A stretch of DNA of 64,000 nt from Streptomyces sp. NBC_01463 (GTDB lineage Bacteria > Actinomycetota > Actinomycetes > Streptomycetales > Streptomycetaceae): positions 744,001 through 808,000 of the forward strand of contig CP109468.1 in assembly GCA_036227345.1 (NCBI GenBank), written 5' to 3'. The translations under genes were made by a program, and so were the position numbers. Numbering within the stretch: the first letter of the stretch is position 1; every line of letters begins with the position of its first letter. This document shows, piece by piece, positions 2,597 through 61,498 of the stretch. The notes beneath the pieces are model-generated. The model was not told the origin of the DNA. It made no database searches and was given only the letters and a program-made list of their open reading frames with translations.

Positions 2597-5386
2597 TCAC
2601 CAGTCCTCGTCCGCCCACTGGTCGAGCAGGGCTTCGCCGTTGAGGCTGCTGTGAGGTACCTCGGTGCCGAGGGACTGCTCGGCCCAGATGACCTTGCCGC
2701 GTGCGGTGTAGCGCGTACCCCAGCGGTGCGCGAGCCGGGCGATGATGAACAGGCCGCGCCCGCCCTCGTCGGTGGTGGCGGCCTGACGCACGTGCGGGGC
2801 GGTGCTGCTGCCGTCCGCGACCTCGCAGATCAGGGTGTCGTCGTCGTGCAGCAAGCGGAGCCTGATCGGTGGGGAGCCGTAGCGGATCGCGTTGGTGACC
2901 AGCTCACTGACGATGAGTTCCGTCGCGTACGTGGCGTCCGCCAGTCCCCACCCGTTCACCGCGCGGGACGCTTCCGCACGGATGCCGGCGACCACGGTCG
3001 GGTCGTCGGGTACGTCCCAGTCGGCGACACTGCCGGGGTCCATGAGATGGGTGCGGGCGACGAGCAGGGCCACGTCGTCCGTGGGCCGGTCGGTCAGCAG
3101 GGCGTCGATGACCGCTTGGCAGGTGGCCTCGGGGCCGAGGTCACCGGGGCGGGCCAGAGTGGCACGCAGGACCTCGAGCCCGGCGTCGATGTCGCGGCCC
3201 CGCCGCTCGACCAGCCCGTCGGTGAACAGGACCAGTCGGCTTCCTGCGGGCAGTACGAGATCGGTGGTCTCCACCGGCAGGCCCTCGTTGATGCCGAGCG
3301 GCGGCGACCCGGGGATCTCCGGGTAGGTGACGGTGCCGTCCGGGAGCACCAGGGCCGGGCCCGGGTGGCCGGCCCTGGACAGGGTGCAGTGCCCGGTGGC
3401 CGGGTCGTAGATGGCGTAGAGGCAGGTGGCACCGGAGATCTCGACGTCGCTGTCCCCCTCGGCGTCGAGCCGGCCGACGAGGGCGTCGAGGTGGGCGAGG
3501 AGTTCGTCGGGGGGCAGGTCCAGGGCCGAGAAGTTGTGCACCGCGGTGCGCAGTCGCCCCATGGTGGCGGCGGCGTGGAGGCCATGGCCGACGACATCAC
3601 CGACCACCAGCGCGACCCGTGCTCCGGGCAGCGGGATGATGTCGTACCAGTCCCCGCCCACGCCCGGCTGAGCCGGGAGGTAGCGATGGGCCACCTCAAG
3701 GGCGGAGTGCGTGGGCAGCGAGCGGGGCAGCAGGCTGCGCTGGAGTGTGACGGCCATGGTGTGCTCGCGGGTGAAACGGCGCGCGTTGTCGATGGCCACA
3801 CCCGCCCGGGCGGCCAGTTCCTCGGCAACGGACAGGTCCTCGGGCTCGAAGGGGCTCTTGTCCTTGCGCCAGAAGTCGACGCTCCCCAGCACCACACCGC
3901 GCGCCTGCAGCGGGGCGGAGATCAGGGAGTGGATGCCGTAGTCCAGGACTGCGCGCACCCGCGGCCGGTCCAGGGCGATCCAGACCTCGGAGGCCGAGAG
4001 GTCGGCGGCGAGCACGGCCCGGCCGCCGGCCACACCGAGCGCCGCGGTACTGCCGTCGGGGAAGTGCACCATCTCCCCCACCGGGTACAGGGGGTGATCG
4101 CCCCGGATTCCGGCGATCGCGGTGCGGCGCATGTCGGAGTCGGCTCCTGTGGGTTCCTCACCGCGCAGCACGGGGTCCAGCAACTCCACGGTGACGAAGT
4201 CGGCGAACCGGGGCACCGCAACGGCCGCCAGTTCCTCGGCGGTGCGCACCACGTCGAGGGTGGTGCCGATGTGCGTGCCGGCCTCGTAGAGCAGTTGCAG
4301 CCGGGACCGCGCCACTTCGGCCCGGCCGGCCAGTTCACGCAGCTCGGTGGTGTCGCGCAGAGTGACCACACTGCCCCGAGGGCCTCCTGAACCCTCGACG
4401 GTACGGAGGTTGACGGCCAGGAGCCGGTCCCCGTTGGAGTGCACCTCGTCGCTGGCAGTCCGTCCCGAGACCAGGAGTTGCGTCGTGTCCGGTGTCAGAC
4501 CGAGGTCGGCCACCTCGCGTTGCTCGGCGTTGCGCGGCAGGTCGAGCAGTCGTCGCGCCTCGTCATTGACCAGCGTGAGCACACCGCGGTCGTCGATGAT
4601 GAGCACGCCTTCCCGCACCGAGTGCAGGACGGCGTCATGGTGCTCGTACATCCGTGTCATCTCGGCGGGCCCCAGGCCGTGGGTCTGGTGGCGCAGGCGT
4701 CTGCTCACGGCCGCCGCCCCGGCCGCGGCCAGCAGGAGTGCCCCGCCCGCGACCGCGAGGATCGCCGGCAGCTGGTGCGCGACCATCTCGTTGACGCTCT
4801 TGACGTAGATCCCGACCGAGATCAGTCCGACGACCCGGCCCTCGGCATCGAAGACGGCGACGGTCGTGTCGACGGCTCGCCCCAGGGCGCTGTCGAACGT
4901 CTCCTGGAAGGGCTTCCCCGTGAGCGCGGGTCCGAAGCCGCCGGTGACATGGCCGCCAATGCGGCCGGGATCGGGGTGGGACCAGCGGATGCCCCTCGGG
5001 TCGAAGGCCACCACATAGCCGACGTCGGCGTCCCTGCGCATCTTCTCCGAACTGGGCTGGAGCACCCGGGTCGGGTTCGGCGACCGCATCGCCGCGGCGG
5101 TGCCCGGTGCGTCCCGGAACGCCACGGCCACGGCGAGCGACCTGTCCCGCGCCTCGTCCGTGGCGTTGTGCTGCGACTGGACGACGAGGACCACGAGGGT
5201 GGCGGCGATGAGCAGGACCGCGACGACCACCTGCAGCAGGAACACCTGTCCTGCGACGCTCCGCGGCATCGGGTTGGACAGCCCGCCACGACGCCGGCCT
5301 CGGAACCGCGACGGAGCCCCTTGCTCAACCATTGGCTCAGCATCACCGAGGACAGCTCCGCGGAGCGGCTGACCGGGCCGGTGCAT
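2597..5386 (-). CDS. Sensor SpoIIE-type phosphatase with Cache, PAS, GAF, PP2C and RsbW-like kinase domains
   Basis: 929 residues. Order: membrane segment (about 45-68), extracytoplasmic CitA/DcuS-like Cache domain (about 70-200), second membrane segment (about 208-228), PAS (about 250-345), GAF (about 365-530), SpoIIE PP2C phosphatase (about 560-770) and an RsbW-like HATPase_c (about 790-905). The metal-binding motifs GGDWYD, GDVVGHG, FTDG and TDDVA are all present, and the kinase has its N box (ELIVSELVTNAIRYG) and G box (GGRGLFI). It should dephosphorylate an anti-anti-sigma protein in response to an external ligand and may also bind an antagonist through its kinase domain. Start 5386 has GAGG 7 bases upstream; ATG 5332 is the alternative. 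No STAS partner lies next to it. Confidence 0.88.
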   Translation of the reverse strand: MHRPGQPLRGAVLGDAEPMVEQGAPSRFRGRRRGGLSNPMPRSVAGQVFLLQVVVAVLLIAATLVVLVVQSQHNATDEARDRSLAVAVAFRDAPGTAAAMRSPNPTRVLQPSSEKMRRDADVGYVVAFDPRGIRWSHPDPGRIGGHVTGGFGPALTGKPFQETFDSALGRAVDTTVAVFDAEGRVVGLISVGIYVKSVNEMVAHQLPAILAVAGGALLLAAAGAAAVSRRLRHQTHGLGPAEMTRMYEHHDAVLHSVREGVLIIDDRGVLTLVNDEARRLLDLPRNAEQREVADLGLTPDTTQLLVSGRTASDEVHSNGDRLLAVNLRTVEGSGGPRGSVVTLRDTTELRELAGRAEVARSRLQLLYEAGTHIGTTLDVVRTAEELAAVAVPRFADFVTVELLDPVLRGEEPTGADSDMRRTAIAGIRGDHPLYPVGEMVHFPDGSTAALGVAGGRAVLAADLSASEVWIALDRPRVRAVLDYGIHSLISAPLQARGVVLGSVDFWRKDKSPFEPEDLSVAEELAARAGVAIDNARRFTREHTMAVTLQRSLLPRSLPTHSALEVAHRYLPAQPGVGGDWYDIIPLPGARVALVVGDVVGHGLHAAATMGRLRTAVHNFSALDLPPDELLAHLDALVGRLDAEGDSDVEISGATCLYAIYDPATGHCTLSRAGHPGPALVLPDGTVTYPEIPGSPPLGINEGLPVETTDLVLPAGSRLVLFTDGLVERRGRDIDAGLEVLRATLARPGDLGPEATCQAVIDALLTDRPTDDVALLVARTHLMDPGSVADWDVPDDPTVVAGIRAEASRAVNGWGLADATYATELIVSELVTNAIRYGSPPIRLRLLHDDDTLICEVADGSSTAPHVRQAATTDEGGRGLFIIARLAHRWGTRYTARGKVIWAEQSLGTEVPHSSLNGEALLDQWADEDW

Positions 5387-56375: not shown

Positions 56376-56744
56376 TTATCGCCGGGGGCCGTCGCTGGTC
56401 TCGTTGCTGCGAGGTGCGGGTGAAAAGAGCCGCTGGATTCCCGTGGTGTTCAGGATGCGTTCCAGGAACGGGGGCGGATGGTCCAGGTACAGCCGCACAC
56501 TTCGCTCGGCGGCTTTGCGGTGGATCATCAGCAGGGCCGAGATGCCCATGGAGTCGCAGAACCGGAGTGCTGCGCAGTCCAGGCGCAGTTCCTCGATGCC
56601 GGGGTGGGCGTTGAGGCATCGGTCGGCCTGCTGGGTGAGTTCGTCGCTGGTGTCGTAGTCGAGGTCGCCGGTGAGATGAAGATGCGTTGTGCCCGGGCCG
56701 GCTTCAACGGTGATGGTGAAGGGGGTATGGGGCGGGGGGATCAT
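56376..56744 (-). CDS. STAS-domain anti-anti-sigma factor
   Basis: 122 residues; ATG overlaps the upstream gene stop (ATGA). STAS fold: FTITVEAGPGTTHLHLTGDLDY, ELRLDCAALRFCDSMGISALL with phosphorylation site Ser65 in the D-S-x-G motif, and a C-terminal helix. When unphosphorylated, such proteins bind an RsbW-type kinase and free a sigma factor. It is cotranscribed with a cobalamin-binding protein and a SpoIIE phosphatase, which should dephosphorylate it. Confidence 0.9.
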   Translation of the reverse strand: MIPPPHTPFTITVEAGPGTTHLHLTGDLDYDTSDELTQQADRCLNAHPGIEELRLDCAALRFCDSMGISALLMIHRKAAERSVRLYLDHPPPFLERILNTTGIQRLFSPAPRSNETSDGPRR

Positions 56745-57844
56745 GCGGGGACTCCGGGGTGTGTGCCGGCTGCCAGGGGTGCGTCGTCCAGGGCGAAGCG
56801 CGCCCGGTTGAGCAGCCGGGTGGATCGGGGAAAGTCGTTGAGCCGGCCCGCCAGGATGTCCAGGGCAGGGTGCAGGGAGTCCGCTGGCACGTGGCGGGCG
56901 GTGAGGATGCCGGCGGTCCAGATGATGAAGTCGGTGAACAGGTCGTCGTCATCGGTGTAGAGAGCCACCCCGAGGAATTCGACGATGTGCGCGATGTCTT
57001 CGGCGGTGCGCTCGCGCTGCTGAGTGCTGTAGGCGGCCATCGCCGGGAAGCGGTCTTCCAGCTGTGCGAGCACTTCCTTGACGAGCTGCGGCTGGGAGCG
57101 GGCGACCAGTGTGTACTCCTGGTCGGCGAGGTGGGGCAGATCGTCGATCTGCTGCCGCCCCGCGGCGGGACTGTGCCGGGGAAGGCCGTCCGCGAGCAGC
57201 TGGGCGGCGGTACGGGCGTCGGGCGCCCAGGCATTGGCGCCCAGGAGGCGGGCGTGACGGCCGTCTGTCCCGAAGGCCGCTCCGCCGGCGAGGACGGGCA
57301 CTCCGATGGCCTGGCAGGCGGTGATCGCGGCGTGGGCGGTGGGCAGCCGGGTGGGGATCGAACTGGACAGGGCAATCGCGTCGGCACCGTTGTTGTGCAG
57401 GTGTGCGATGAGGTGGGGAGTGGGGACCTGGGCGCCCAGGAAGTCGACCTGCCAGCCTCGCAGGGTGAGGACTTCCGCCAGAAGGCGGGCGGGCAGGACG
57501 TGCCATTCCTGGTCCACGCAGGCGACGGTGATCCGTCCGAGCGTCGGTGGGGTACGGGTGGAGGGATGGTGGGCGAGGGCGGCTATGACGCGTTCGGTGA
57601 TGGCGCTGGCGGCGTGTTCCTGGGCAACGCTCAGGCGGTTGGCCGCCCATTCGCTCCCGACCTTCGACTGCACCGGCGCGATGAGGTCGAGCAGGATCGT
57701 CTCGGCGCCCATGCCGTTCTCCAGGGCGGCGATGAGGATGTCCGCGGCGCGGTGTTCGTCGCGGCTGGTGACCGCTGTCCAGAGCCGGCCGCGCACTGCC
57801 TGGATGCTTTCGCTGCCGGAGCCGGCGTCATCGGTTGAACTCAT
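56741..57844 (-). CDS. Cobalamin-binding protein with CarH/LitR photosensor signature and no DNA-binding domain
   Basis: 367 residues from ATG 57844, overlapping the phosphatase stop by 4 bp; the frame extending to 58105 is a shadow. Residues about 15-95 form a helical cap domain (B12-binding_2) with W66, nine residues, then E76-H77: the W-x9-EH motif of light-sensing CarH/LitR proteins. Residues about 100-225 form the B12-binding domain with E113-x-H115 (EWHVLP), so His115 should ligate cobalt; DFLGAQVPTPHLI follows. Residues about 235-360 are a separate helical domain of unknown role. There is no MerR helix-turn-helix. It lies between STAS and SpoIIE genes, so it probably regulates the partner switch by light or cobalamin. 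Confidence 0.85.
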   Translation of the reverse strand: MSSTDDAGSGSESIQAVRGRLWTAVTSRDEHRAADILIAALENGMGAETILLDLIAPVQSKVGSEWAANRLSVAQEHAASAITERVIAALAHHPSTRTPPTLGRITVACVDQEWHVLPARLLAEVLTLRGWQVDFLGAQVPTPHLIAHLHNNGADAIALSSSIPTRLPTAHAAITACQAIGVPVLAGGAAFGTDGRHARLLGANAWAPDARTAAQLLADGLPRHSPAAGRQQIDDLPHLADQEYTLVARSQPQLVKEVLAQLEDRFPAMAAYSTQQRERTAEDIAHIVEFLGVALYTDDDDLFTDFIIWTAGILTARHVPADSLHPALDILAGRLNDFPRSTRLLNRARFALDDAPLAAGTHPGVPA

Positions 57845-59523
57845 GCCGTGTACCTGCCCCGGGTGTGGCCGTTCACCGCGCTCAGGTGGTTCGTGGGAGG
57901 TGCGCTGATCGCGATGACGGCCATGTCGTCGTGGCTGCCGTTGCGGAGCCATTGCGCGGCGAGCATCTGGATGTGCTCGACGACAGCTTCCCCGGGCATG
58001 CCGACGCACTCCGCCATGGCACGCTTCAGGCGTTGCTCGCCGAACAGTTCGTCGCCGAGCGGTCCGCCGCGGGCCTCGGTGAAGCCATCGGTGTAGAGCA
58101 GGCATGTCTCGCCCGGCTGCAGTACGGCTTCGACCGAGCTGATGTCGATCGTCGGCAGTACACCGATCAGGGTGCCCTGTGTGGGGATCTCCTCGACGCT
58201 GCCGTCCACTCTGACGACCAGGGGCGGAGGGTGACCGGCGGAGGTGAGACGGAGCCGCACCTGGTGCTCGGCACGCTGCACCGAGGCCATCACGAGCGTC
58301 GCGAAGCGGGTGTGGTGGGAGCTCAGGAGAGCGCCGTTGAGCAGGTTCAGCATCCGCCCGTGGTCGTCGGCCATCGGCATCAGGGCTTGCAGGGTGTTGC
58401 GGATCTTGCCGGTCAGGACTGCCGCCTCCAGGCCCTTCCCGCAGACATCGCCGAGGACCACCAGTGCGGACTCCGCCGCGGTGCTGCCGGGGTGCACGTC
58501 GTAGAAGTCGCCGCCGATACGTTCGCCGGCCTCGGCGGGCCGGTAGCCTCCGGCGATCTCCACCCCGTTGAGCCGCTCCAGCCGGGGAGGCAGCAGATCT
58601 CGCATCAGGGTCTGGGTTATGGCGCTCTGCTCGCCGTAGAGACGGGCCGCGGACAGTGCGGCCCCGGATCGTGCCGCGAACAGCCGGGCGAAGATCTCCT
58701 CGTTCTCACTGAACTGCGCACGGTCCGAACTGCGCAGCAGGATCAGGGCTCCGGCGGGCACACCATGGCCGGGGAGAGGGGTCACGACGACGGATCCGAT
58801 GGACCCCCTGAAGTCCTGCGGGACGATCCAGTCGGGCAGGGTCGCAGGGTCGATCCAGCGGGAGGGCACGGGCGGGAATCCCTGCAGTGCCTCGCTGAGA
58901 CCGGGCAGTTGCGAGGGGGTAGCGCTCACCGCGGCCCGGGTGGCGGTTTGTCCCGCGATGGCGCGTGCGAGGAGCATTCGGCTGCCGGACGGCGGGGTGA
59001 CGACGACCGCGACATCTGCGAGATGCTGAGCGGCCAGCTCCGCGGTGGCCGCCATGCACTTCTCGGTGTTCAAGGAGGAGAGCAGGACATTGGACGCCTC
59101 CGCGAGGAAAGTCGTGCGTTCGCGCTCGGTGACGAGTGCCTCTTCGGCAAGTCGCCGGTCGGTGTCGTCGACCAGCCACCACACCACGTCCCCGCTCTGG
59201 CTCCAGGTCGGATGCGCCTCGAAACTCTGCGACGAGATCCGCCCCGATACCGAAGGCAGCCCACCGGCCTTCTGATGCCTCCGGGCGGGCGACCGGCCCT
59301 GCACGACCGTTTCCAGGTGGGCCTGTGCCAGCCAGTCGGGGACCGTGTCCCGCATGCTCGCCCCAGGCACCGCACCCTCCAGAAGAAGTGCGGCGGCGGG
59401 GTTCGCCTCCAGGACGGTGCCCCTCTCGTCAGCCATGATCATGGGGTAGGGGGCCAGGGCCCATAGGTCGGGCGCGGAACGCTGCTCGGTTCGCGTAACG
59501 GAGACTCCCTCGGTAGTAGCCAT
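57841..59523 (-). CDS. SpoIIE-type phosphatase with PAS and GAF domains
   Basis: 560 residues from ATG 59523; the frame extends to 59664 without a better start. PAS (residues about 15-125; APYPMIMADERGTVLEANPAAALLL), GAF (about 150-310), PP2C-SpoIIE (about 335-545). Metal-binding motifs are complete: GGDFYD, GDVCGKG, YTDGFTEARG and HDDMA. It should dephosphorylate the STAS protein encoded two genes downstream. No membrane segments. It overlaps the cobalamin protein by 4 bp, so all three are one unit. Confidence 0.9.
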   Translation of the reverse strand: MATTEGVSVTRTEQRSAPDLWALAPYPMIMADERGTVLEANPAAALLLEGAVPGASMRDTVPDWLAQAHLETVVQGRSPARRHQKAGGLPSVSGRISSQSFEAHPTWSQSGDVVWWLVDDTDRRLAEEALVTERERTTFLAEASNVLLSSLNTEKCMAATAELAAQHLADVAVVVTPPSGSRMLLARAIAGQTATRAAVSATPSQLPGLSEALQGFPPVPSRWIDPATLPDWIVPQDFRGSIGSVVVTPLPGHGVPAGALILLRSSDRAQFSENEEIFARLFAARSGAALSAARLYGEQSAITQTLMRDLLPPRLERLNGVEIAGGYRPAEAGERIGGDFYDVHPGSTAAESALVVLGDVCGKGLEAAVLTGKIRNTLQALMPMADDHGRMLNLLNGALLSSHHTRFATLVMASVQRAEHQVRLRLTSAGHPPPLVVRVDGSVEEIPTQGTLIGVLPTIDISSVEAVLQPGETCLLYTDGFTEARGGPLGDELFGEQRLKRAMAECVGMPGEAVVEHIQMLAAQWLRNGSHDDMAVIAISAPPTNHLSAVNGHTRGRYTA

Positions 59524-59722: not shown

Positions 59723-60940
59723 TCAGCGGCCATGGCTCGCGGAACGGCCGTGCCAGTCCAGGCACATCACCAGGGAGTCGTCCGCCGCCGGGCCGGAACC
59801 GCGGTGCCCCAGCAGCTCCTGGAGCATCACTCTGGGCACCTGCGGGGCGGGCAGCAGACGGGTGTTGTTGATCGACGCGGCCAGTGCGCGGAGGCTGTAC
59901 TTCTCACCGCCCGGCGACAGGGCGTCGTAGACGCCGTCACTGATGAAGAGCAGCCGGTCTCCGGGCTCGACCCGGAACTGCTGCGGAACGTACGCGGTGT
60001 CCTCGAACATGCCCAAGGGCATCTGCGCCTCCAGCTCGATCGGTTCGACCACTCCCCTGCGCACCCGCCACACCCGTGGTGAACCGGCGTCGATGATCTC
60101 CACGTCCCCGGTCGGGAGGTGGAAGCGGAACAGCAGAGTCGACAGGTACTGGCTTCCCCTGTGCTGCCCGTACACCGCCTGATCGGCCAGATACGCCTGG
60201 TCGCTCAGACTCAGGCCGGCGCGGCGGGCATTGCGCAGCGCGTTGATGGCGAGGTTCGTCAGCAGCGCGGCGTCGATCCCCTCGCCCATGCCGTTGCTGA
60301 CGGTCACGTACAGGTCATCGGCAGAGGCGGACCAGTCGAAGCTGTCACCGAAGATGGCATAGGCGGGCTCCAACTGGGCACCCAGGCTGTACTCCGGCCG
60401 GGCACAGGAACGCCCCGGCAACAACTGCCACTGCATCTCGGCGGCCAGGGTCAGCCGTTCCGCGCGCCGCGCCTGCAGGAAGACGTCGGTGTCGCGTTCG
60501 GCGACGACCACCTCGTGCGCCAGAGCGTCGGCGCACTCCTGCAGGTCCTGCAGTACGGCCGCAGACAGCTCGCCGTCCTCGGCCGCCCGCACTGTGACGC
60601 TCAGGACGCCCAGGCGGTCGCCTCGGACGCTGACCGGCAGGTACACGGTCACCGTGGACGCCTGGTGGTCGTGCACACAGTGAGGTTCCTGGGCGCCGAA
60701 CGCACGACCCGGAGCGCTGTCGTGCACCGGCACCGGAGGCCGGGTGTGCGGCAGGACCCCGACGGGCTGCAGCCGCGTCATCGCGTAGTCGACCAACAGC
60801 AGGTCCACCGACCGGGCACCATGCCGGCGCTCGATCAGGGAACGGACGACGTCAAAAATCTCGTGGGGCGCGGCCTCGCGCAGAGAGCGCTCGACCGCAC
60901 TGGGTCTGTCCACCGGTACCGGACCTACTTTCTTTCGCAT
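59723..60940 (-). CDS. GAF/SpoIIE-type phosphatase with an altered metal site
   Basis: 405 residues from ATG 60940 (MRKKVGPVPV), weak ribosome site. GAF-like region (about 30-180), PP2C-SpoIIE domain (about 190-400). GDSFDW, ISDG and ADDSLVM are present, but the usual DAMGHG/DVSGHG motif reads SNGMGEG, so a metal-binding Asp is Asn and the His is Glu. Activity may be weak or lost. It is upstream of the cobalamin unit on the same strand with a 199-bp gap, and divergent from a MarR gene. It may be a second input to, or a decoy in, the same switch. Confidence 0.83.
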   Translation of the reverse strand: MRKKVGPVPVDRPSAVERSLREAAPHEIFDVVRSLIERRHGARSVDLLLVDYAMTRLQPVGVLPHTRPPVPVHDSAPGRAFGAQEPHCVHDHQASTVTVYLPVSVRGDRLGVLSVTVRAAEDGELSAAVLQDLQECADALAHEVVVAERDTDVFLQARRAERLTLAAEMQWQLLPGRSCARPEYSLGAQLEPAYAIFGDSFDWSASADDLYVTVSNGMGEGIDAALLTNLAINALRNARRAGLSLSDQAYLADQAVYGQHRGSQYLSTLLFRFHLPTGDVEIIDAGSPRVWRVRRGVVEPIELEAQMPLGMFEDTAYVPQQFRVEPGDRLLFISDGVYDALSPGGEKYSLRALAASINNTRLLPAPQVPRVMLQELLGHRGSGPAADDSLVMCLDWHGRSASHGR

Positions 60941-61009
60941 ATCTTCATCAAAGCGACTGCCAACATCGACCGGCCGGAACGGGCACCAAGGTCCAAACGG
61001 GAGTGTCAC

Positions 61010-61498
61010 ATGCGCGAGGCCCTCACCTCCCTCCACCAGCACACTTCCCCTGCCGTGCCCGAAATCGGCCAGGTGCTCGAGCTGCTCGAAATCGCCTGGG
61101 AGCATCGCCGCGACACGCTCAGCACCGCGCCGCTCTCCCCCGCCCAGACTCGTGTGATGTACATCATCGAGCGGGAGCCCGGCGTCAACCTGAGCACGCT
61201 GGGCCGCCGTCTCTCCGCCGCCGCTCCGTCGATCACTCGCCTCTGCGACCGTCTACAAGCTGCCGGCTTCGTGCGCCGAACCCCGCGCCCCGAGGACCGC
61301 CGTGAGATGCAACTGGAACTCACCGACGTCGGCATCGCGCACCTGCACGCCATCAGGAACCGCCGCGAGGAAGTCCTCCACCAGGCCATGAGCCGCATGA
61401 CTCCCGAGGCCCAGAACGCCCTCGCCACCGGACTCATCGCCCTGTGCGACGCGGTCAGCACATCCGGACAGGACATCGGCCACCGAGCATCGGCCTGA
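61010..61498 (+). CDS. MarR-family regulator
   Basis: 162 residues from ATG 61010, ribosome site GGGAG; a longer in-frame opening runs upstream through the divergent gene and is not real. Winged helix: APLSPAQTRVMYIIEREPGVNLSTLGRRLSAAAPSITRLCDRLQAAGFVRRTPRPEDRREMQLELTDVG. It is divergent from the SpoIIE-type gene by 69 bp and may control it. Confidence 0.86.
   Translation: MREALTSLHQHTSPAVPEIGQVLELLEIAWEHRRDTLSTAPLSPAQTRVMYIIEREPGVNLSTLGRRLSAAAPSITRLCDRLQAAGFVRRTPRPEDRREMQLELTDVGIAHLHAIRNRREEVLHQAMSRMTPEAQNALATGLIALCDAVSTSGQDIGHRASA

What the first reader, a model, noticed from the sequence alone, without database searches (positions are those of the whole stretch)
56376..59523. Cobalamin photosensor-like protein built into a STAS/SpoIIE partner switch
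The three genes overlap by ATGA: phosphatase, cobalamin protein, STAS antagonist. The middle protein has W66-x9-E76-H77, the signature of CarH/LitR adenosylcobalamin light sensors, and E113-x-H115 for cobalt ligation, but no MerR DNA-binding domain. Instead it ends in a helical domain of about 130 residues. A direct link from B12-based light (or cobalamin) sensing to an anti-anti-sigma switch would be a different output from the known DNA-binding CarH/LitR systems.
Basis: partly seen in the sequence, partly recalled or inferred. Interest (0 to 1): 0.82.

Follow-up and report, generated by a model that had tools for sequence, protein, structure and literature searches.

The report
Photocobilin light sensor beside sigma-factor switch
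This gene trio encodes a recently described kind of light sensor that uses vitamin B12 and a bile pigment, made together with a phosphatase and a switch protein of the kind that control which genes are turned on, so light probably sets that switch, although nobody has tested it here.

Summary
Three minus-strand genes overlap by ATGA: PAS-GAF-SpoIIE phosphatase, B12 protein, STAS protein; the W-x9-EH and E-x-H residues are present.

The B12 protein is not an orphan CarH variant. It is a photocobilin, a family described in 2024: full-length match to crystallised SasPcob (E 6e-82; model TM-score 0.93; 44% identity). The "helical domain" is the biliverdin-binding globin domain; all six functional residues named for SasPcob are kept. 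The same paper already proposed STAS and SpoIIE as SasPcob partners (from STRING), so the link itself is not new.

Added here: (1) a SpoIIE phosphatase lies directly upstream in 80 of 80 nearest loci (seven genera) and 30 of 30 loci of a more distant family; STAS follows in 75 of 80 and 16 of 30; (2) linked phosphatases form one lineage apart from 30 other phosphatases of this genome; (3) they carry a conserved, predicted-disordered C-terminal motif (HLxAV type) absent from those 30; (4) 14 of 18 more distant photocobilins show no SpoIIE nearby.

Most likely mechanism: light-driven loss of adenosyl from B12 changes the sensor's contact with the phosphatase and so STAS phosphorylation. Sign, kinase and sigma factor are unknown.

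The parts
57841..59523 (-). SpoIIE/RsbU-type PPM phosphatase, 560 aa: PAS (about 28-119), helix 121-149, GAF (about 153-265), helix linker 273-309, PPM 321-540, disordered C-terminal tail HLSAVNGHTRGRYTA (546-560)
   Evidence: Pfam SpoIIE 8.4e-42; PAS_8 and GAF only below their cut-offs; AF2 model pLDDT 84, pTM 0.50; catalytic D339, D359, D479 in 76 of 79 and D532, D533 in 77 of 79 linked phosphatases, the rest being partial frames
56741..57844 (-). Photocobilin, 367 aa: cobalamin-binding four-helix and Rossmann domains (20-204) plus C-terminal globin-like bilin domain (242-354); W66, E76, H77, H115 (AdoCbl), D283, W309 (bilin)
   Evidence: Full-length match to 8j2w/8j2x E 6e-82; AF2 model pLDDT 86 whose five best PDB matches are photocobilin chains; residues compared with those named in PMC10979010 through the alignment
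56376..56744 (-). STAS anti-sigma antagonist, 122 aa, candidate phosphorylation site S65 in DSMG
   Evidence: STAS_2 4.7e-17, TIGR00377 over its cut-off; S65 kept in 71 of 75 linked STAS proteins, D64 and G67 in 75 of 75
59723..61105 (-). Second SpoIIE-domain phosphatase (460 aa), 199 bases upstream of the trio; optional neighbour, not a core part
   Evidence: Pfam SpoIIE 4.4e-36; a homologue in the same place and strand in 13 of 80 loci, L002, L003, L004, L008, L010, L011, L012, L014, L015, L016, L021, L042, L044

Best explanation
The middle gene encodes a standalone photocobilin. In the dark it holds adenosylcobalamin (H115 below the cobalt, W66 and E76-H77 around the adenosyl group) and a bilin in the globin domain (D283, W309). 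Green light on the corrin, or red light on the bilin, breaks the Co-C bond (inferred from SasPcob). The shape change alters the sensor's contact with its co-translated partner, the PAS-GAF-PPM phosphatase, probably through the helical linker before the PPM domain and possibly through the phosphatase's conserved C-terminal peptide (inferred). The phosphatase dephosphorylates S65 of the STAS protein made from the same operon, which then binds an RsbW-like anti-sigma kinase and frees a sigma factor (inferred from the SpoIIE/RsbU paradigm). Shown here: family, residues, fold, operon conservation, dedicated phosphatase lineage, tail motif. Not shown: chromophore binding, light effect and its sign, the contact, the kinase, the sigma factor.
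For: Family and fold. Residues: W66, E76, H77, E113, H115, D283, W309 invariant in 80 of 80 near loci and in the 30 loci of family f6 (31 rows, one place twice). Operon: SpoIIE directly upstream in 79 of 80 by rule and in the 80th (L055, whose frame runs on) by the table; STAS downstream in 75 of 80; f6 loci 30 of 30 SpoIIE and 16 of 30 STAS. Different surroundings: DivIVA, YGGT and FtsZ genes in Mycobacterium loci. Single phosphatase lineage: support 93/92, and 100/99 without L090, L092, L096. Tail motif: 68 of 79 and 21 of 30 distinct f6 loci, against 0 of 29 other own-genome phosphatases and not in the neighbour 59723-61105. Published: photocobilin state changes a diguanylate cyclase's activity, also in trans; phosphatases and diguanylate cyclases share coiled-coil linker control; STRING link of SasPcob to STAS and SpoIIE.
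Against: No contact or light effect is shown. Kinase and sigma factor unassigned: 74 HATPase_c_2 matches at E up to 0.001 in the genome, none adjoining the trio. STAS is missing in L048, L049, L055 and L076 and undetected in 14 of 30 f6 loci. The phosphatase frame is split or partial in L018, L073 and L078. The phosphatase has its own PAS and GAF domains and may sense something else. Canonical heme oxygenase does not track the sensor: Streptomyces-type genus 45 of 47 with and 94 of 103 without the sensor (Fisher p 0.50); G074's genus 10 of 28 and 30 of 90 (p 0.82). The loci share descent, so counts are not independent events.
Confidence: 0.6

Rival explanations
1. The photocobilin acts on the STAS protein rather than on the phosphatase: in one light state it covers or presents the DSxG loop, like an RsbR split into two chains (globin sensor and STAS).
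For: The STAS gene overlaps the sensor gene (exact 4-base overlap possible in 68 of 80). The literature relates the globin of RsbR to photoglobins, using it as outgroup (PMC10151467, passages).
Against: The phosphatase is the more constant neighbour: present where STAS is not found (L048, L049, L076, L090, L092, L096 and 14 of 30 f6 loci). No case of STAS without phosphatase was seen among the 80 near loci or the 30 f6 loci.
Confidence: 0.15
2. The protein senses adenosylcobalamin or bilin supply, or redox state, rather than light; the operon reports cofactor status to a sigma factor.
For: The same residues that make AdoCbl photolabile also simply bind it. The organisms are not phototrophs. 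Heme oxygenase does not track the sensor.
Against: W, EH and the lower His are the light-response signature (PMC11796333, passages), and SasPcob, 44% identical over the full length, is photoactive. D283 and W309 are invariant.
Confidence: 0.14
3. The three genes are only co-inherited and co-expressed; the sensor has another target, such as a diguanylate cyclase elsewhere.
For: SasPcob can act in trans on a foreign diguanylate cyclase. The loci are related by descent, so counts are not independent.
Against: The trio stays together while its surroundings change, and the linked phosphatases are a separate lineage with their own tail.
Confidence: 0.08

Closest known systems
SasPcob, standalone photocobilin of Saccharothrix syringae (PDB 8J2W, 8J2X; PMC10979010)
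   Same: Full-length homology and fold, all six named chromophore residues, standalone; STAS and SpoIIE named in print as potential partners
   Different: 44% identity; its own locus was not in the genomes I could read; the paper's partner claim is from STRING, not from an operon I could check
AbDPcob / AbPcob, photocobilin-diguanylate cyclase (PDB 8J2Y)
   Same: Same sensor fold (30% identity); light raises the enzyme's activity
   Different: Output fused in one chain and of another kind; His in place of the bilin-binding Asp
CarH/LitR B12 photoreceptors
   Same: Cobalamin core with W-x9-EH and lower-axial His
   Different: CarH has a MerR DNA-binding domain and no globin domain; here no MerR and a bilin domain
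RsbU/RsbT and SpoIIE/SpoIIAA phosphatase switches of Bacillus
   Same: PPM phosphatase acting on a STAS antagonist; helical linker before the PPM domain
   Different: Input here would be a photocobilin; kinase and sigma factor not identified
RsbR stressosome globin-STAS proteins and light-sensing stressosome members (RsbL seen in a search listing; YtvA recalled)
   Same: Sensor coupled to a STAS switch; globin-type or light input
   Different: Sensor and STAS are one chain there and no B12; here separate chains with a phosphatase

Membership tests
Photocobilin | Cobalamin-binding core with W-x9-EH and E/D-x-H | tested here: met
   the paper writes W-(10)x-EH but its numbering (W61, E71) equals W-x9-E
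Photocobilin | C-terminal globin-like domain with the bilin-contacting Asp and Trp | tested here: met
   D283 and W309 align with D270 and W296 of SasPcob; invariant in 80 of 80 near loci
Photocobilin | Overall fold as in 8J2W/8J2X/8J2Y | tested here: met
   Five best PDB matches, TM by target length 0.93-0.86
Photocobilin | Binds AdoCbl and biliverdin with optical coupling | not testable with these tools
   Needs purified protein. A canonical heme oxygenase is encoded in this genome
CarH/LitR | N-terminal MerR DNA-binding domain | tested here: not met
   No MerR match; NF052513 45.9 bits against a cut-off of 400, matching positions 96-262 of 274 only
RsbR-type stressosome protein | Globin-like domain and STAS domain in one chain | tested here: not met
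   STAS is a separate gene; no STAS match in the B12 protein
Partner-switching module | PPM phosphatase with catalytic aspartates | tested here: met
Partner-switching module | STAS protein with phosphorylatable Ser/Thr | tested here: met
   S65 here; Ser in 71 of 75 relatives and Thr in 1; Ala in 2 and Pro in 1
Partner-switching module | Cognate anti-sigma kinase | tested here: inconclusive
   None adjoining the trio; 74 HATPase_c_2 matches genome-wide. In 11 of 80 near loci a kinase-like ORF lies 1.2-2.0 kb from the sensor's midpoint on the opposite strand; the one in L012 was scanned and is HATPase_c_2
Partner-switching module | Cognate sigma factor | not tested
   Sigma factors were not searched for

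The most novel reading that the evidence does not exclude
Standalone photocobilins of Actinomycetes are dedicated light-operated subunits of one lineage of PAS-GAF-PPM phosphatases, docked through the phosphatase's conserved disordered C-terminal peptide (HLxAV type), giving a B12/bilin light-to-sigma-factor switch that covers green and red; in mycobacteria without canonical heme oxygenase the bilin slot may hold another heme-breakdown product.
Probability: 0.3. Interest if true: 0.72.

Novelty: new member of a known kind. Interest (0 to 1): 0.5.

Why it matters
The 2024 photocobilin paper says the function of standalone photocobilins is less clear and offers STAS and SpoIIE as candidates from a network. 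The directly read operon, the single phosphatase lineage and the tail motif turn that into a defined, testable pair: which protein is touched, by which peptide, and whether light changes dephosphorylation of one named serine. If true, common non-photosynthetic actinomycetes couple green and red light to sigma-factor control through B12, and the pair would be a ready-made light-controlled phosphatase.

Tried and rejected
Considered and rejected: membership in CarH/LitR (no MerR) and in RsbR (no STAS in the chain). Not usable as support: heme oxygenase co-occurrence, flat in both genera tested. A CarH model search of the own genome gave 12 matches, none over cut-off; as none of the 14 control genomes passed either, this says little about a separate CarH.

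Errors found and corrected: the first overlap script gave a false 'no SpoIIE' for 76 loci, corrected. The phosphatase tree lacked many own-genome paralogues and that used antisense translations for minus-strand loci; both are set aside. Minus-strand tails printed are antisense too; replace them. The first SpoIIE profile was narrow, so the distant loci were scanned again with a broader one, with the same result. My simple gene caller missed the B12 gene in the window and served only to spot recurring neighbours.

Led nowhere: the photoglobin paper (PMC8717448) is not held, so what I know of it is recalled from its abstract and from citing papers. SasPcob's own locus was not among the sampled genomes (best matches 59-60% identity). 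No tool predicts complexes. Searches for print on this link; among the papers listed only PMC10979010 was seen to join photocobilins with STAS and SpoIIE.
Full report
What is there. The three reading frames, their strand and both ATGA overlaps are as reported. The outer genes are a SpoIIE/RsbU-type PPM phosphatase and a STAS anti-sigma antagonist. The middle protein has PF02607 and PF02310 and no DNA-binding domain.

What the middle protein is. A sequence search of solved structures gave full-length matches to two entries of SasPcob (E 6e-82) and one of AbPcob (1e-42), far better than CarH (2e-8). An AlphaFold2 model (40 sequences, pLDDT 86) has photocobilin chains as its five best PDB matches, TM by target length 0.93 to 0.86, with 44% identity to SasPcob. 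The photocobilin paper (PMC10979010; abstract, sections 6, 8 and 9 and part 1 of 2 of section 7 read) names W61, E71, H72 and H108 for AdoCbl and D270 and W296 for biliverdin; through the alignment these are W66, E76, H77, H115, D283 and W309 here. So the helical domain of the finding is the globin-like bilin domain of a known sensor family.

Conservation of the sensor. Of 1799 homologues (only 7997 candidates were scored, a cap), 120 are listed; with the query, 121 of 121 keep W66, E76, H77, E113 and H115. In the 80 loci kept of 407 relatives in reference genomes all seven residues, D283 and W309 included, are invariant. In L090, L092 and L096 (about 35% identity) D283 is replaced (A in one, T in two), so those may not use a bilin; among 14 distant photocobilins without SpoIIE it is D in 12, H in 1, E in 1.

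Conservation of the operon. The 80 near loci are by title 43 Streptomyces (one of them titled [Kitasatospora] papulosa), 26 Mycobacterium or Mycolicibacterium, 4 Actinacidiphila, 3 Amycolatopsis, 2 Saccharothrix, 1 Streptantibioticus and 1 Nocardia: seven genera if the two mycobacterial names count as one. A SpoIIE phosphatase lies directly upstream on the same strand in 79 of 80 by rule; in the 80th, L055, its frame runs on past the usual stop (table). In L018, L073 and L078 the frame is split or partial. STAS follows in 75 of 80 by domain position and 76 of 80 by a looser test; L048, L049, L055 and L076 lack it in both. An exact 4-base overlap is possible in 73 of 80 (phosphatase-sensor) and 68 of 80 (sensor-STAS), choosing the best of the possible start codons, which is a permissive count. 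In family f6 the phosphatase is upstream in 30 of 30 distinct loci and STAS downstream in 16 of 30. Of 18 loci from a phylum-wide sample of 396 genomes, L082 (the f6 member), L090, L092 and L096 have an upstream phosphatase and 14 have none, also with a broader profile; two of the 14 (L085, L097) have under 1.2 kb of upstream sequence, so they cannot speak. The method thus does not find SpoIIE everywhere. Loci share descent, so these are not independent events, but the surroundings differ: DivIVA, YGGT and FtsZ genes beside it in Mycobacterium loci, other genes in Streptomyces.

A dedicated phosphatase lineage. The genome has 41 SpoIIE matches, of which 30 were returned as loci. I compared 52 linked PPM domains (a subset of those available; two rows are the window twice) with 30 unlinked ones: 29 returned loci, the linked one removed, plus the neighbour 59723-61105. 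The linked ones are one side of a branch with 93/92 support (ultrafast bootstrap/SH-aLRT), in 92% of 200 bootstrap trees; without L090, L092 and L096 the branch has 100/99. The 93 is just under the tool's starring level of 95. About ten own-genome phosphatases were not in the tree. The phosphatase model shows PAS, helix, GAF, a 37-residue helix linker, PPM and a disordered tail (pTM 0.50, so the arrangement of domains is unsure).

A conserved tail. The last 15 residues, HLSAVNGHTRGRYTA, are predicted disordered (pLDDT under 50) yet conserved. A motif of the form [HRY]LxAV (third-last place A, S or T) occurs in the last 34 residues of 68 of 79 linked phosphatases, HLSAV exactly in 58, and in the last 50 residues of 22 of 31 f6 rows, 21 of 30 distinct loci. 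It is in none of 29 other own-genome phosphatases nor in the neighbour 59723-61105 by the same test. L090, L092 and L096 lack it. Third codon positions vary in HLSAVxGHT, so the protein is constrained there; the R of GRY is AGG in 57 of 62, which fits a ribosome-binding site for the sensor gene. Whether the tail binds the sensor, the STAS protein or something else is open; in f6 seven loci keep the tail with no STAS detected and two have STAS without the tail, which leans weakly towards the sensor.

How it probably works. SasPcob loses adenosyl under green light, and under red light when biliverdin is bound; photocobilin state changes the activity of a diguanylate cyclase, also when added in trans. 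RsbU is activated by a partner acting on a linker that forms a coiled coil, an architecture shared with diguanylate cyclases (PMC12143880: abstract and two sections read), and PPM phosphatases recognise STAS substrates by surface loops (PMC11418112: abstract and opening text). A photocobilin driving a PAS-GAF-PPM phosphatase on a co-encoded STAS protein is the simplest reading. The sign of the light effect cannot be inferred: in trans, SasPcob without biliverdin acted the opposite way to SasPcob with it.

What does not fit or is missing. No kinase gene adjoins the operon here, and 74 HATPase_c_2 matches leave the target open. In 11 of 80 near loci, all close Streptomyces (L005, L006, L007, L009-L013, L016, L017, L020), a kinase-like ORF lies on the opposite strand downstream; the one in L012 is HATPase_c_2 by Pfam, and a further STAS gene was confirmed in L010. 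Heme oxygenase does not track the sensor: 45 of 47 sensor-bearing and 94 of 103 other genomes of the window's genus have PF01126, and 10 of 28 against 30 of 90 in G074's genus. The bilin residues are nevertheless kept in all 26 named mycobacterial loci, so where mycobacteria get the bilin, or which one, is open.

Novelty. The sensor family and the suggestion of STAS and SpoIIE partners are in print. Added here are the directly read operon with its counts, the phosphatase lineage and the tail. I file it as a new member of a known kind that gives a testable answer to an open question about standalone photocobilins.

Noticed in passing
window 59723-61105 (-): A second SpoIIE phosphatase of another lineage sits just upstream; a homologue holds the same place and strand in 13 of 80 near loci.
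   Followed up: partly
genomes of G074's genus: 18 of 28 photocobilin-bearing genomes have no canonical heme oxygenase (PF01126), though named mycobacterial photocobilins keep the bilin-binding Asp and Trp; another heme-degrading enzyme or another bilin may serve.
   Followed up: partly
L012:10011-10496 (-), L010:9509-9991 (-): An anti-sigma-kinase-like HATPase gene (L012) and a further STAS gene (L010) on the opposite strand just downstream of the trio; a kinase-like ORF in that place in 11 of 80 near loci.
   Followed up: partly
L024, L026, L028 and other Mycobacterium loci: The trio lies beside cell-division genes (DivIVA, YGGT, FtsZ by Pfam, one example each scanned).
   Followed up: no
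L003, L053, L080, L081: The STAS phosphorylation Ser is replaced (Ala in 2, Thr in 1, Pro in 1, which locus has which not recorded).
   Followed up: no
L090, L092, L096: Distant photocobilins (about 35% identity) with an upstream phosphatase of the linked lineage but no STAS, no tail motif and no bilin-binding Asp: perhaps a B12-only version.
   Followed up: partly
window 2597-5386 (-): A 929-aa reading frame joins sCache, PAS, GAF, SpoIIE and HATPase_c_2 domains in one chain.
   Followed up: no
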